Positions 55,940 to 59,797 of a stretch of DNA of 64,000 bases are shown piece by piece (position 1 is the first letter of the stretch; the number at the start of each line of letters is the position of its first letter). The position numbers were made by a program, and so were the translations under genes. The notes beneath the pieces are model-generated. The model had not been told where the DNA came from. It did no database searches and saw only the letters and a list, made by a program, of their open reading frames with translations. This DNA is from Baekduia soli (GTDB lineage Bacteria; Actinomycetota; Thermoleophilia; Solirubrobacterales; Solirubrobacteraceae): the NCBI RefSeq assembly GCF_007970665.1, contig NZ_CP042430.1, positions 4,464,001 through 4,528,000 on the forward strand, in the 5' to 3' direction.

Positions 55940-56461
55940 TCAGACCAGCAGCTCGGTGCCGATCCAGGCGATGAGCGCCACGACGACGAGCGCGGCGACC
56001 AGCCCGAGCAGGATCCGTGACGGGGCGTCGATGCCCGCGCGCGCCCGGGCCGAGCGCCCGTCGGGGGCGGGCAGCAGATCGGCCTGCAGCAGCACCTCGC
56101 GGGCGGTCTGCACCCCCGACCGCGGCACGAGGACGTCGCGCGGGCCGGCGGCCAGCATGTCGGGCACGTCGAAGCCGCGGGAGCGCCGCAGCATGGACGG
56201 GACGCCCTCCTCGAGCAGCATGCCCTGGATGAGCTCGGCCTCGGCCTGGTGGCGGCCGCCGGCGACCCGGACGAGCTCGCCCTCGCTGAGCTGGGGCTTG
56301 ATCTTGCGCGCCCGGGCGTGCGCCTCGGTGACCACGGCGTCCGCGCCGCGCGGGCCGGGGTGGACGAGCGGCATGCCACAGGCCGCGCAGAAGCGCTCGT
56401 GCAACGGGTGCGCGGTCCCGCACGAGGGGCAGACGAGCGCCGCGGGCTCAGGCCGAGCCAT
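55940..56461 (-). CDS. Zinc ribbon-DUF2007-membrane anchor protein
   Basis: A 173-residue protein: N-terminal zinc ribbon CPSCGTAHPLHERFCAACG (about 11-29), a DUF2007-like putative signal-transducing domain (ELVRVAGGRHQAEAELIQGM then LLEEGVPSMLRRSRGFDVPD, about 62-125) and a C-terminal membrane helix (ILLGLVAALVVVALIAWIG). Last gene of the sulfur-carrier cluster by position; whether it takes part in it is unknown. Confidence 0.8.
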   Translation of the reverse strand: MARPEPAALVCPSCGTAHPLHERFCAACGMPLVHPGPRGADAVVTEAHARARKIKPQLSEGELVRVAGGRHQAEAELIQGMLLEEGVPSMLRRSRGFDVPDMLAAGPRDVLVPRSGVQTAREVLLQADLLPAPDGRSARARAGIDAPSRILLGLVAALVVVALIAWIGTELLV

Positions 56462-56479: not shown

Positions 56480-56860
56480 TCAGCCCTCGACCTGGACCTC
56501 GGCCTCGCTGACCTGGCCGTCGGCGATCCGCCAGTTGCGGACCTCGGGCTCGTCGCCGGCGACGCCGATGATGAGCCACTCCATGCCGGGCCAGTTGGCC
56601 GCGAAGTTGATGTCGGTCTGCGACGGGCGCGGGGCCGATCGCGTGTGGGAGTGGTAGATGACCGCCTCCTCGACCTGCCCGAGCGCCAGCACGTCGGCGG
56701 GGGCGAACTCGAAGCGCAGCGGGCTGTGCGCAGTGTTCTGCACCGGCACGACGTCGACCGCGCGCCCGTCCCGGAGCACCACGAACCCGCAGCACTCCAC
56801 CGGCGCCTCGCGCCGGGCGTGGTCGACGATCTGCTGCAGCAGGGCGGGCGCGATCTTCAT
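56480..56860 (-). CDS. mec: JAMM/MPN+ metalloprotease (Mec-like)
   Basis: A 126-residue JAB1/MPN zinc protease. Catalytic Glu in PVECCGFVVL (about 21) and the JAMM motif HSHTRSAPRPSQTD (about residues 70-83: His-x-His and Asp). In Mycobacterium the homologue Mec cleaves CysO-cysteine to release cysteine. Here the gene lies in the same minus-strand block as cysM, a CysO-like carrier and a MoeB-rhodanese, so the same job is very likely; it may also trim the carrier's tail. Minus-strand TAGGGT lies 8 nt upstream of the ATG. Confidence 0.9.
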   Translation of the reverse strand: MKIAPALLQQIVDHARREAPVECCGFVVLRDGRAVDVVPVQNTAHSPLRFEFAPADVLALGQVEEAVIYHSHTRSAPRPSQTDINFAANWPGMEWLIIGVAGDEPEVRNWRIADGQVSEAEVQVEG

Positions 56861-56962
56861 CGCGTCAGACCCTAGCGAGCGCGCCCGGCCACCCAGCGCA
56901 GCACGAAGCCGCCCGGCGTGCCGCCGGGGCGCCGCGGCGCTCGCCGCACGGGCGAGGCCGCG

Positions 56963-57139
56963 TCACTCGCTCTTGATCGCGGGCTTCTCGTCGTCGCGGT
57001 GCTCGCCGTTGATCGAGTCCTTGAACTCGCGCATGCCCTTGCCCATGGCGCGGCCCGCCTCGGGCAGCTTCTTGGGGCCCAGCACGATGAGCGCGATGAC
57101 GAGGATGACGATCAACTCGGGAAAGCCGATTCCGGGCAT
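56963..57139 (-). CDS. tatA: Sec-independent protein translocase TatA
   Basis: A 58-residue TatA/E: N-terminal membrane helix [15 protein letters not shown], hinge [20 protein letters not shown] and a charged tail ending in KPAIKSE. Pore-forming part of the twin-arginine export machine. It lies between mec and cysM; no tatC is in the window, and the location looks incidental to cysteine synthesis. Confidence 0.94.
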
Positions 57140-57220
57140 AGATGCAGTCTCTCAGGGTCGGGTTGTCGTGAGACTAAGCCAAAGCGACAGCGTGTGTATC
57201 GGCTCTCGGCTGCCGGATCC

Positions 57221-58195
57221 TCACCACCACACCGTCGACTCGAGGTTCTCGACCTCGTCGACGGGCAGCGTGTAGATGCCGGAGGACAGGTACTTCCAGC
57301 CGTCGTCGCAGACGATGAACACGACGTTGCCCTCGTCCATCTCGCCCGCGATGCGCACGGCGATCGACGCGATGGCCCCCGAGGAGACGCCCGCGAAGAT
57401 GCCCTCGTCGTCCAGGAGCCGGCGCGTCCAGATGATCGCGTCGCGGTTGGTCACGAAGATCTTGCGGTCCAGGACGGAGAGGTCGATGATCGGCGGGATG
57501 AAGCCGTCGTCGAGGGAGCGCAGCCCTTGGACGGGCTCGCCCTGCATGGGCTCGGCGGCGACGATCTTGACCGCGTCGCCCAGCTCCTCCTTGAAGCGCC
57601 GGCCGTTGCCCATCAGCGTGCCGCCCGTGCCCAGGCCCGCCACGAACGCAGCGATCTGGCCGTCGAGCTCCTCGAGGATCTCGGGCGCCGTGCCCTCGTA
57701 GTGGGCGCGCGGGTTGGCCGGGTTGCCGTACTGGTAGGGCATGTAGTACGACGGGTCGGACCCGGCCATCTCCAGCGCCATGGCGACGGCGCCGTTGGAG
57801 CCCTGGCTGCCGGGCGAGTACACGATCTCGGCGCCGTACATCTTCAGCAGCTGGGTGCGCTCGGGCGTGACGTTGTCGGGCATGACCACCTTGAGGCGGT
57901 AGCCCTTGCGCTTGGCGATCATCGCCAGCGAGATGCCGGTGTTGCCCGAGGTCGGCTCGAGGATCGTGGTGTCGGGCCCGATCGCGCCCTTCTCCTCGGC
58001 GTCCTCGATGAGCGCCCGCGCGACGCGGTCCTTGACCGAGCCCGTCGGGTTGAACGACTCCATCTTGGCCCAGATGCGGACGCCCGGCTTCGGCGACAGC
58101 CGCCGCATCTCGATGAGCGGCGTGTTGCCGATGGCCTGGACGATGTCGCTGTAGCGACCGCCGCAGGGCCGGTTCTTCAGAGGCGGGAGACCCAT
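57221..58195 (-). CDS. cysM: Cysteine synthase (CysM type, sulfur-carrier dependent)
   Basis: PLP enzyme making cysteine. The 324-residue protein has IGNTPLIEMRRLS, the PLP lysine in ESFNPTGSVKDRVARA, EPTSGNTGISLAMIAKRKGY, and AGLGTGGTLMGNGRRFKEE. NPANPRAHYEGTAPEIL and the C-terminal STVWW segment fit the O-phosphoserine/CysO-thiocarboxylate class. Neighbouring CysO-like, MoeB-rhodanese and JAMM genes strongly support that route rather than free sulfide. Minus-strand TATATT lies 9 nt upstream of the ATG. Confidence 0.92.
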   Translation of the reverse strand: MGLPPLKNRPCGGRYSDIVQAIGNTPLIEMRRLSPKPGVRIWAKMESFNPTGSVKDRVARALIEDAEEKGAIGPDTTILEPTSGNTGISLAMIAKRKGYRLKVVMPDNVTPERTQLLKMYGAEIVYSPGSQGSNGAVAMALEMAGSDPSYYMPYQYGNPANPRAHYEGTAPEILEELDGQIAAFVAGLGTGGTLMGNGRRFKEELGDAVKIVAAEPMQGEPVQGLRSLDDGFIPPIIDLSVLDRKIFVTNRDAIIWTRRLLDDEGIFAGVSSGAIASIAVRIAGEMDEGNVVFIVCDDGWKYLSSGIYTLPVDEVENLESTVWW

Positions 58196-58204
58196 ACTTC
58201 ACGA

Positions 58205-58210
58205 AATATA
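58205..58210 (-). promoter_or_regulatory. Candidate -10 for cysM
   Basis: Minus-strand TATATT, unusually A/T-rich for this window, ends 9 nt before the cysM ATG. Confidence 0.5.
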
Positions 58211-58309
58211 GCGCTGCGCCGCAGCACGCCTGAAGGCCTCACACACCGGCACGACCACGCCGCCGGCACCCGCGGGACCCGCCCCCTGGGCGGACGCTCG
58301 CCAAGGAGC

Positions 58310-58600
58310 TCATCGCCCTCCGGGCGACGCCCCTCCCGCCATGGCCGGCAGGATCACCAGCACGTCGCCCTCGCCGACCCCGGTGGTCAGCCCGTCGAGG
58401 ACGCGGACGTCCTCGTCGTTGAGGTAGACGTTGACGTAGCGGTTGAGCTCGCCGTCGGCGCCGAAGAGCTGGCCGCGGGTGTCGGGGTGCGCGGTGGCCA
58501 GGCCCTCGAGCACCTCGCCGACGGTGCCGCCGTCGGCCTGGACCTCGCGCTCGCCGCCCACGGACGGGCGCAGCACGGGCGGGATGCGGATCGTCGCCAT
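58310..58600 (-). CDS. cysO: MoaD/ThiS-type sulfur carrier (CysO-like) with C-terminal tail
   Basis: A 96-residue ubiquitin-fold carrier. TIRIPPVLRPSVGGEREVQA at the start, YVNVYLNDEDVRVLDGL and GDVLVILPAMAGG near the end match mycobacterial CysO. The Gly-Gly that must be the C-terminus for adenylation is followed by six more residues, ASPGGR, so the precursor needs trimming, or the terminal GGR differs functionally. It lies between cysM and the MoeB-rhodanese gene. Confidence 0.88.
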   Translation of the reverse strand: MATIRIPPVLRPSVGGEREVQADGGTVGEVLEGLATAHPDTRGQLFGADGELNRYVNVYLNDEDVRVLDGLTTGVGEGDVLVILPAMAGGASPGGR

Positions 58601-58612
58601 AGGTCGTGGACC

Positions 58613-59797
58613 CTAGCCCGCCGCGGCGCAGAACGCCTCGTAGTCGGGGAACACGCCGAGCTCGTCGTCGGTGATCGACTCCGGCTCGCGCGAGCAGATC
58701 GGGCACTCCGGGTCGCGGCGCACCTTCAGCTCGGTCGTCGTCGCACCCAGCGCGTCGTAGATCAGCAGGCGCCCGATGAGCGGGTCGCCCTCCCCGATGA
58801 TGAGCTTGATGACCTCGGTGGCCTGCAGCAGGCCCATCGTGCCGGGCAGCACGCCCAGAACGCCGTTGGCGCCGCAGGACGGCGCCAGCTCGGCCGGAGG
58901 CGGCTGGCGGAACAGGCAGCGGTAGCACGGCCCGTCGTAGGGGGCGAAGACGCTGAGCTGGCCCTCGAAGCCGAGGATCGCGGCGCTGACGACCGGGATC
59001 TTCAGCCGCACGGAGGCGTCGTTGAGCAGGTAGCGCGTCGGGAAGTTGTCGACACCGTCGACGACGATGTCGTAGTCCTTGATGATCTCGACGATGTTCG
59101 ATGCGTCCAGGCGCGCCTGGTACTTGCGGACCTCGACGTCGGGGTTCAGCGCGTTGATGGCCTCCTCGGCGCTGTCCACCTTCGGCACCCCGACGCGGCC
59201 GGTCGTGTGGATGATCTGGCGCTGGAGGTTGGAGAGGTCGACGACGTCGTCGTCGACGATGCCCAGCGTGCCGACGCCGGCGGCCGCGAGGTACAGCGCG
59301 GTCGGCGAGCCCAGGCCCCCGGCGCCGAGCAGCAGCACCTTGGCGTCCAGGAGCTTCTGCTGGCCGTCGACGCCGACCTCGGGCAGCAGGAAGTGGCGGG
59401 AGTAGCGCTGGCGCTGCTCGGGTGTGAAGGCGCGGGGCACCTCGACGGCGTAGCCGCGGTCCTTCCACAGCGTGTAGCCGCCGGTCATCGACTCGACGTG
59501 CTCGTAGCCCAGGTCGTCGCGCAGCGTCTTGGCCGCCAGCGCGGAGCGGTTGCCCGAGGCGCAATAGAGGATGACCCGCTGGGAGCGGTCGGGCGCCGCG
59601 CCCTCGATGCGCGACTCCAGGAAGCCGCGTGGGACGTGGTGGGCGCCCGGCAGGTGGCCGGCGTCCCACTCGTCGCTCTCGCGGACGTCCACGATCACGG
59701 CCTGGTCACCGCCGGTGACCTCGCTGACGGCCGACGGGTCGACCTCGTCGATCTGGGCCTTGACCTGCTTGATGAACTCGGCGCCGGAAGGGCTCAC
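58613..59797 (-). CDS. Rhodanese-MoeB fusion (sulfur-carrier adenylyltransferase)
   Basis: A 394-residue protein. N-terminal rhodanese domain (about 17-118) with persulfide Cys79 in LYCASGNRS; then an E1-like MoeB/ThiF domain (about 125-394) with FTPEQRQRYSRHFLLPEVG, ATP-binding LLGAGGLGSPTALYLAAAG, DNFPTRYLLND and zinc CYRC/CPIC pairs. It activates the carrier's Gly-Gly end and transfers sulfur to form a thiocarboxylate. In mycobacterial MoeZ the rhodanese is C-terminal; here it is N-terminal. GTG start at 59797. Confidence 0.93.
   Translation of the reverse strand: MSPSGAEFIKQVKAQIDEVDPSAVSEVTGGDQAVIVDVRESDEWDAGHLPGAHHVPRGFLESRIEGAAPDRSQRVILYCASGNRSALAAKTLRDDLGYEHVESMTGGYTLWKDRGYAVEVPRAFTPEQRQRYSRHFLLPEVGVDGQQKLLDAKVLLLGAGGLGSPTALYLAAAGVGTLGIVDDDVVDLSNLQRQIIHTTGRVGVPKVDSAEEAINALNPDVEVRKYQARLDASNIVEIIKDYDIVVDGVDNFPTRYLLNDASVRLKIPVVSAAILGFEGQLSVFAPYDGPCYRCLFRQPPPAELAPSCGANGVLGVLPGTMGLLQATEVIKLIIGEGDPLIGRLLIYDALGATTTELKVRRDPECPICSREPESITDDELGVFPDYEAFCAAAG

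What the first reader, a model, noticed from the sequence alone, without database searches (positions are those of the whole stretch)
56480..59797. Sulfur-carrier cysteine pathway with a carrier that ends beyond Gly-Gly
Seen: a CysO-like protein whose PAMAGG motif is followed by ASPGGR, in one strand block with MoeB-rhodanese, CysM and a JAMM protease. Known: mycobacterial CysO ends exactly at Gly-Gly; in thioquinolobactin (QbsE/QbsD) and Wolinella homocysteine (HcyS/HcyD) systems a JAMM protease first removes extra residues from the carrier. Inference: the Mec-like protease here may have two jobs, exposing Gly-Gly and later releasing cysteine.
Basis: partly seen in the sequence, partly recalled or inferred. 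Interest (0 to 1): 0.65.

Follow-up and report, generated by a model that had tools for sequence, protein, structure and literature searches.

The report
Capped sulfur-carrier protein beside its protease
A bacterial sulfur-carrier protein for making cysteine is produced with a few extra residues hiding its working end, most likely cut off by the neighbouring metalloprotease; the principle is already known in Streptomyces, but in this bacterial class the caps are common, short and variable, and in some relatives the carrier is even joined to the next enzyme of the pathway.

Summary
In detail: the CysO-like carrier (58310-58600, minus) reads ...LVILPAMAGG|ASPGGR and lies in one strand block with MoeB-rhodanese, CysM and a JAMM protease (a TatA gene sits between CysM and JAMM). 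This tail is not conserved: the same-genus relative has a single Cys. But having something after Gly-Gly is the rule in the class: of 118 distinct orthologues read, 89 have tails (74 of 1-2 residues), 11 are fused in frame to CysM, 18 end at Gly-Gly. ThiS from one family of the class ends exactly at Gly-Gly in 25 of 25. Tails are far shorter than read-through would give, favour Ala and never begin with Pro. In the same family the best MoaD matches have Gly-Gly internal, 30 of 30 loci. The own genome has one Prok-JAB match. Best reading: the JAMM exposes Gly-Gly and later frees cysteine, chemically the same cut. Need for a JAMM clustered with a capped carrier already has genetic support in Streptomyces (PMC6006322), so this is a new member of a known kind; for the CysO-CysM polyproteins I found no report. 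No biochemistry was possible.

The parts
58613..59797 (-). MoeB-type E1 with N-terminal rhodanese domain; predicted to adenylate and thiocarboxylate the carrier
   Evidence: Pfam Rhodanese 30-113, ThiF 132-366; NCBIfam PRK08762 over cut-off
58331..58600 (-). CysO-like sulfur carrier domain, residues 1-90, ending PAMAGG
   Evidence: Pfam ThiS; PDB 3dwg_C E 3.4e-20, residues 2-90 (that this entry is the M. tuberculosis CysM-CysO complex is recalled)
58313..58330 (-). cap ASPGGR after Gly-Gly (stop codon 58310-58312)
   Evidence: sequence; caps in orthologues
57221..58195 (-). CysM, cysteine synthase of the CysO-dependent type by sequence
   Evidence: Pfam PALP; best PDB sequences 3dki, 3dwg, 3dwi (cysteine synthase B / O-phosphoserine sulfhydrylase), E about 1e-95, alignment reaching the C-terminal Trp
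56963..57139 (-). TatA-like protein lying between CysM and the JAMM gene; probably not part of the pathway
   Evidence: Pfam TatA_B_E
56480..56860 (-). JAMM metalloprotease (Mec-like); predicted to remove the cap and to free cysteine from CysO-Cys
   Evidence: Pfam Prok-JAB; motif; E22, H70, H72, S80, D83 invariant in the 20 homologues aligned; model mean pLDDT 92, best PDB fold P. furiosus JAMM1 with SAMP2, 5lda
55940..56461 (-). zinc-ribbon protein downstream of the JAMM gene; relation to the pathway unknown
   Evidence: Pfam Zn_Ribbon_1

Best explanation
The carrier is made as an inactive, capped precursor. The JAMM metalloprotease cuts after Gly-Gly, removing ASPGGR; MoeB-rhodanese then adenylates and thiocarboxylates the exposed glycine, CysM transfers the sulfur to an activated serine giving CysO-Cys, and the same JAMM cuts again after Gly-Gly to release cysteine and free carrier. 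Both cuts are hydrolysis of a Gly-X bond after the same ubiquitin-like fold, so a cap needs no new chemistry; a carrier encoded with a single Cys after Gly-Gly (as in the same-genus relative) has the same sequence as the pathway's own intermediate. Shown here: the genes, the cap, the spread and length pattern of caps, the controls, the fusions. Inferred: every catalytic step.
For: Caps or fusions in 100 of 118 distinct orthologues of the class. ThiS ends at Gly-Gly in 25 of 25 (25 of the 30 genomes searched had one). The 11 CysO-CysM fusions were found by domain architecture without a motif filter and all keep Gly-Gly, with linkers of 6-12 residues; in a model of one the stretch from Gly-Gly through the linker (residues 87-99) has pLDDT under 50 between two folded domains. 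Caps are short (74 of 89 are 1-2 residues) and residue 1 is Ala in 47 of 89 and Pro in 0 where 13.1 are expected. MoaD has internal Gly-Gly in 32 of 39 model matches of the family, so these genomes need such a cut elsewhere too. Prok-JAB over cut-off in 30 of 30 family genomes, one match in the own genome; JAMM in 10 of 11 fusion genomes; JAMM gene within the fetched stretch in 68 of 80 named loci. Literature: HvJAMM1 cuts SAMP1-MoaE after Gly (PMC4443979, passages); DR0402 cuts MoaD-MoaE (reported in PMC8832034, passages); Streptomyces JAMM deletion (PMC6006322, section 7).
Against: No assay. 18 of 118 orthologues, and all those read in 7 of 58 genera, end at Gly-Gly, so a cap is not required. 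The window's own cap occurs in no other carrier read. Five capped or fused carriers lie in genomes where no JAMM was found (G065, G105, G177 and the genomes of L145 and L212); their contigs are short or, in G065, G105 and G177, end within 1.4 kb downstream of the carrier or fused gene. Mycobacterial MoaX is cut after Gly-Gly by a protease that PMC4326299 (passages) leaves unidentified, so a non-JAMM enzyme is conceivable. Deleting the capped carrier PtmS2 in Streptomyces had no effect on product (PMC6006322). The cap-length and first-residue tests treat related sequences as independent and use downstream codons as null.
Confidence: 0.8

Rival explanations
1. The cap is removed by another peptidase (for example a general carboxypeptidase or an endoprotease), and the JAMM serves only CysO-Cys.
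For: MoaX of M. tuberculosis is cleaved by an unidentified protease (PMC4326299, passages); five capped or fused carriers in draft genomes without a JAMM match.
Against: A carboxypeptidase could not free the carrier from 11 CysO-CysM fusions; JAMM gene within the stretch in 68 of 80 named loci; ThiS not capped; JAMM deletion phenotype in Streptomyces (PMC6006322).
Confidence: 0.12
2. The caps are neutral: because the JAMM cuts there anyway, loss of the stop codon after Gly-Gly costs nothing, and caps drift without function. (This rival shares the cutting step with the best explanation and differs on whether the cap matters.)
For: No conserved sequence; caps differ within genera; at least 5 changes between capped/fused and uncapped on a quick MoeB tree of 68 rows; uncapped copies persist.
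Against: Free drift predicts long extensions; 87 of 89 caps have at most 10 residues while only 12 of 107 downstream frames close within 10 codons; Ala excess and Pro absence. This constrains but does not exclude the rival, since long tails may simply be harmful.
Confidence: 0.45
3. The capped carrier works uncut, in a role that needs no free C-terminal glycine.
For: None found beyond the cap itself.
Against: Gly-Gly closes the domain in all 179 full-length carriers of the class read, fusions included (matches had to reach position 88 of the 90-position model); the C-terminal glycine must be accessible for adenylation (PMC3227635, passages); MoeB-rhodanese is adjacent.
Confidence: 0.03
4. Sequencing or assembly error lengthened the ORF.
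For: Two tails longer than ten residues in the class set (53 residues in L022, 23 in L259) could be errors.
Against: The own genome is a single contig; 100 distinct orthologues show caps or fusions.
Confidence: 0.01

Closest known systems
Streptomyces platensis PtmS2 (cap MV), PtmS3 (cap C) with JAMM PtmS1 (PMC6006322, passages and section 7 read)
   Same: Sulfur carriers capped after Gly-Gly; PtmS2 clustered with a JAMM gene; JAMM needed in vivo for carrier-dependent thioacid formation.
   Different: Studied for natural-product thioacids; that PtmS2 is a CysO is my inference. The window block also carries CysM and MoeB-rhodanese, and a six-residue cap.
Thioquinolobactin QbsE/QbsD (known here only as described in PMC6006322; original not held)
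   Same: A protease exposes Gly-Gly of a capped carrier.
   Different: Siderophore pathway; gene set recalled, not checked.
Mycobacterial CysO-CysM-Mec pathway (PMC3227635 passages; PDB 3dwg)
   Same: Homologous carrier and CysM, a JAMM; same proposed chemistry.
   Different: Its carrier ends at Gly-Gly (3dwg_C; M. shimoidei L214); there the E1 has a C-terminal rhodanese domain.
MoaD-MoaE and SAMP1-MoaE fusions cut by JAMM proteases (PMC4443979, PMC8832034, passages)
   Same: Ubiquitin-like carrier with internal Gly-Gly freed by a JAMM.
   Different: Molybdopterin synthase; the CysO-CysM fusions in relatives of the window join the carrier to cysteine synthase.
ThiS/MoaD + E1-rhodanese + JAB + cysteine synthase operon, row 4c of Iyer 2006 (PMC1779556, passages)
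   Same: Same gene set; that paper also suggested a JAB could free carriers fused to other proteins.
   Different: Caps and CysO-CysM fusions are not in the passages read.

Membership tests
JAMM-uncapped sulfur carriers (QbsE/QbsD, PtmS2/PtmS1 type) | residues after the Gly-Gly of a ThiS-fold carrier | tested here: met
   ASPGGR after PAMAGG
JAMM-uncapped sulfur carriers (QbsE/QbsD, PtmS2/PtmS1 type) | JAMM with intact catalytic residues encoded near the carrier | tested here: met
   56480-56860; motif, residues invariant in 20 homologues
JAMM-uncapped sulfur carriers (QbsE/QbsD, PtmS2/PtmS1 type) | JAMM cuts after Gly-Gly of the capped carrier | not testable with these tools
   needs biochemistry
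CysO-CysM-Mec cysteine pathway | carrier, CysM of the 3dwg type, E1-rhodanese and JAMM encoded together | tested here: met
CysO-CysM-Mec cysteine pathway | CysM uses carrier thiocarboxylate and JAMM frees cysteine | not testable with these tools
   inferred from homology
Ubiquitin-like carrier polyproteins (MoaD-MoaE type) | carrier fused in frame to its partner enzyme with internal Gly-Gly | tested here: not met
   window carrier is separate; 11 class relatives are CysO-CysM fusions

The most novel reading that the evidence does not exclude
The cap is a selected licence: in most of this class the cysteine carrier, and usually the main MoaD, are translated with Gly-Gly blocked by a short, Pro-free, mostly small-residue cap or by the partner enzyme itself (CysO-CysM, MoaD-MoaE), and one or few JAMM proteases per genome unlock them, so that carrier activation depends on that protease, while ThiS stays outside this control. 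Some caps encode the CysO-Cys intermediate directly.
Probability: 0.3. Interest if true: 0.62.

Novelty: new member of a known kind. Interest (0 to 1): 0.45.

Why it matters
It shows that the mycobacterial CysO that ends at Gly-Gly is not the general case: in this class about 85% of the orthologues read would need a protein cut before they can carry sulfur, which would give the Mec-type JAMM a second, earlier job and make the pathway depend on it from the first turn. The CysO-CysM fusions are natural test substrates with an internal Gly-Gly, and the Ala-rich, Pro-free first cap residue is a testable prediction of the protease's preference.

Tried and rejected
Conserved tail: rejected; short caps are shared, not sequence, and the same-genus relative (G017, L044) has C.

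Pure read-through drift: weakened by cap length and first-residue pattern, not excluded.

Caps tied to JAMM presence across genomes: the JAMM-less genomes examined (families f6, f8; 31 genomes, none over the Prok-JAB cut-off, 4 with weak matches below it) carry other carrier types, so their Gly-Gly ends (25 of 25; 23 of 23 scored of 30 loci, nine of these reading Gly-Gly-Gly, seven loci unscored, one place shared between the sets) compare different families. ThiS inside JAMM-containing genomes is the better control.

Second carrier as a clean control: carriers with motif PAVAGG, in the own genome downstream of threonine synthase, end at Gly-Gly in 15 of 24 but are capped in 9, so this is only a weak control; linkage to threonine synthase was not checked in all, and L257 among them has no recognised neighbour.

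Besides 30 loci with internal Gly-Gly, nine weaker matches were read: two more are fused, six end at Gly-Gly (one of them, L383, in the own genome) and one has S after Gly-Gly.

Literature: the held library has no paper with both Thermoleophilia and CysO; searches for CysO with CysM, fusion, JAMM or JAB listed no CysO-CysM fusion, judged from titles, abstract starts and the passages named. Sasaki 2014 and Godert 2007 are not held, so what they say on caps is unknown here. A search for the Wolinella system gave nothing that I followed.
Full report
Observation. The carrier ORF 58310-58600 (minus) encodes 96 residues ending PAMAGG-ASPGGR. Its block holds MoeB with N-terminal rhodanese (58613-59797), CysM (57221-58195), a TatA-like gene (56963-57139), the JAMM gene (56480-56860) and a zinc-ribbon gene (55940-56461), all minus. 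The carrier aligns over residues 2-90 with 3dwg_C (E 3.4e-20), which ends at its Gly-Gly, and CysM best matches 3dki, 3dwg and 3dwi. The JAMM has the E, HxH, S, D set, invariant in the 20 homologues aligned, and its model (mean pLDDT 92) best matches Pyrococcus JAMM1 bound to the ubiquitin-like SAMP2 (5lda).

Own genome. It is one contig of 5.21 Mb. It has one Prok-JAB match, a ThiS ending at Gly-Gly (L267), a second CysO-like carrier downstream of threonine synthase ending at Gly-Gly (L002), a MoaD fused to MoaE with internal PPVSGG followed by Ala (L310) and a further MoaD-like carrier ending at Gly-Gly (L383).

Spread of caps. A search of 199 genomes of the class with the carrier matched in 182. 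Among the class loci read, 130 have motif PAMAGG or PALAGG, which I took as the CysO group; they come from 118 genomes and give 118 distinct carriers after removing duplicates: 18 end at Gly-Gly, 34 have one extra residue, 40 two, 1 three, 12 four to ten, 2 more than ten, and 11 continue into CysM. Three class loci gave no full-length carrier and were dropped (L003, L135, L142). By genus, 45 of 58 have only capped or fused carriers, 6 are mixed, 7 have only Gly-Gly ends. The same-genus relative G017 has the cap C (L044). Not every match was fetched; choice was by rank in the listing, with later additions aimed at possible fusions, so the fusion share may be inflated.

Controls. ThiS: 25 of the 30 family genomes searched have one and 25 of 25 end at Gly-Gly; Fisher test against 100 of 118, p about 1e-16, ignoring relatedness and with ThiS from one family only. 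MoaD in the same 30 genomes: 29 have a match; 30 loci from 29 genomes have Gly-Gly internal (L309 runs off its contig), MoaE was confirmed by Pfam in the 4 tested; of nine weaker matches, two are fused, six end at Gly-Gly and one has S after it. The PAVAGG paralogue ends at Gly-Gly in 15 of 24 and is capped in 9. In JAMM-less families f6 and f8 (31 genomes, none over the Prok-JAB cut-off), MoaD-like carriers end at Gly-Gly in 25 of 25 and 23 of 23 scored of 30, but these are other carrier types.

Constraint on caps. 74 of 89 caps have one or two residues and 87 of 89 at most ten, whereas only 12 of 107 in-frame stretches after the stop close within ten codons (68 stay open to the end of what was read, at most about 30 codons). 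The first cap residue is Ala in 47 of 89 (13.3 expected from downstream codons) and Pro in 0 (13.1 expected); counted once per genus, fusions included, Ala 28, Ser 11, Arg 7, Pro 0. Among 51 named loci mostly outside the class, 37 have residues after Gly-Gly and none of these begins with Pro. These sequences are related, so the p-values are only indicative.

Fusions. Eleven class genomes encode carrier and CysM in one frame with Gly-Gly intact and a variable linker, with MoeB-rhodanese beside them; the JAMM gene follows in the nine loci with enough sequence (L241 and L250 end first). They fall in families f7 and f10, and within genera g34 and g79 both fused and separate forms occur; at least 6 changes on a quick MoeB tree of 68 rows. 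Without a stop codon after the carrier, free carrier can only arise by a cut. A model of one fusion has the stretch from Gly-Gly through the linker at pLDDT under 50 between folded domains. Five further loci outside the class (four from Chloroflexota records, one Vicinamibacterales) fuse a CysO-like domain with Gly-Gly to MoeB; in the four a separate CysO is also present.

JAMM presence. Comparing the lists by eye, the 118 genomes all have a JAMM match except G065, G105 and G177. Of 12 named genomes whose stretch showed no JAMM, 10 have one elsewhere and 2 (those of L145 and L212) do not. The contigs of these five carriers are short or end soon after the carrier, so a missed gene is possible.

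Outside the class. In a phylum search with a mycobacterial carrier (296 genomes, 171 matched) I read the 30 loci given, the best-scoring: 16 are capped and 14 end at Gly-Gly; a JAMM lies in the short stretch in 26, of which 14 are capped. Of the 80 named loci, 59 are capped, 20 end at Gly-Gly and 1 is fused (some are the same organisms as in the class set). Mycobacterium shimoidei (L214) ends at Gly-Gly; Streptomyces and Actinopolyspora loci carry caps such as MR, MG, SV.

Known work. Dong et al. 2018 (PMC6006322, section 7 and passages read) describe capped carriers in Streptomyces platensis (MV; C), a JAMM gene clustered with one, loss of thioPTM/thioPTN on deleting that JAMM, no loss on deleting the clustered carrier alone, and call the need for a protease typical of capped carriers. 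PMC4443979 (passages) shows HvJAMM1 cutting SAMP1-MoaE after glycine and activating it. PMC8832034 (passages) reports DR0402 cutting MoaD-MoaE. Iyer et al. 2006 (PMC1779556, passages) list this operon type and suggested that a JAB could free fused carriers. So the principle is known; I found no report of CysO-CysM fusions in the held library.

Verdict. The tail is real, its sequence is not conserved, its presence is the rule in the class. Most likely the JAMM makes the same cut twice, first on the cap, later on CysO-Cys. Whether the cap is selected or merely tolerated is open; the short length and first-residue bias lean towards constraint.

Noticed in passing
L223-L227, L232-L234, L241, L242, L250: In-frame CysO-CysM fusions with intact internal Gly-Gly beside MoeB-rhodanese, with the JAMM gene following where the sequence reaches.
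   Followed up: yes
L184, L186, L194, L211, L195: CysO-like domain with Gly-Gly fused in front of MoeB; in the first four a separate CysO gene is also present.
   Followed up: partly
L310:547-1755 (own genome): MoaD-MoaE fusion followed in the same frame by a stretch matching the SelB beta-barrel domain (Pfam PF25461, E 3.8e-9).
   Followed up: no
L002:1495-1770 (own genome): Second CysO-like carrier directly downstream of threonine synthase, ending at Gly-Gly; function unknown.
   Followed up: partly
56963-57139: TatA-like gene inside the cysteine block, between CysM and JAMM.
   Followed up: no
L018, L044, L152, L209: Carriers encoded with a single Cys after Gly-Gly, the same sequence as the CysO-Cys intermediate (L018 and L152 may be one organism).
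   Followed up: partly
L022: Carrier with a 53-residue tail, possibly an assembly error or a rearranged end.
   Followed up: no
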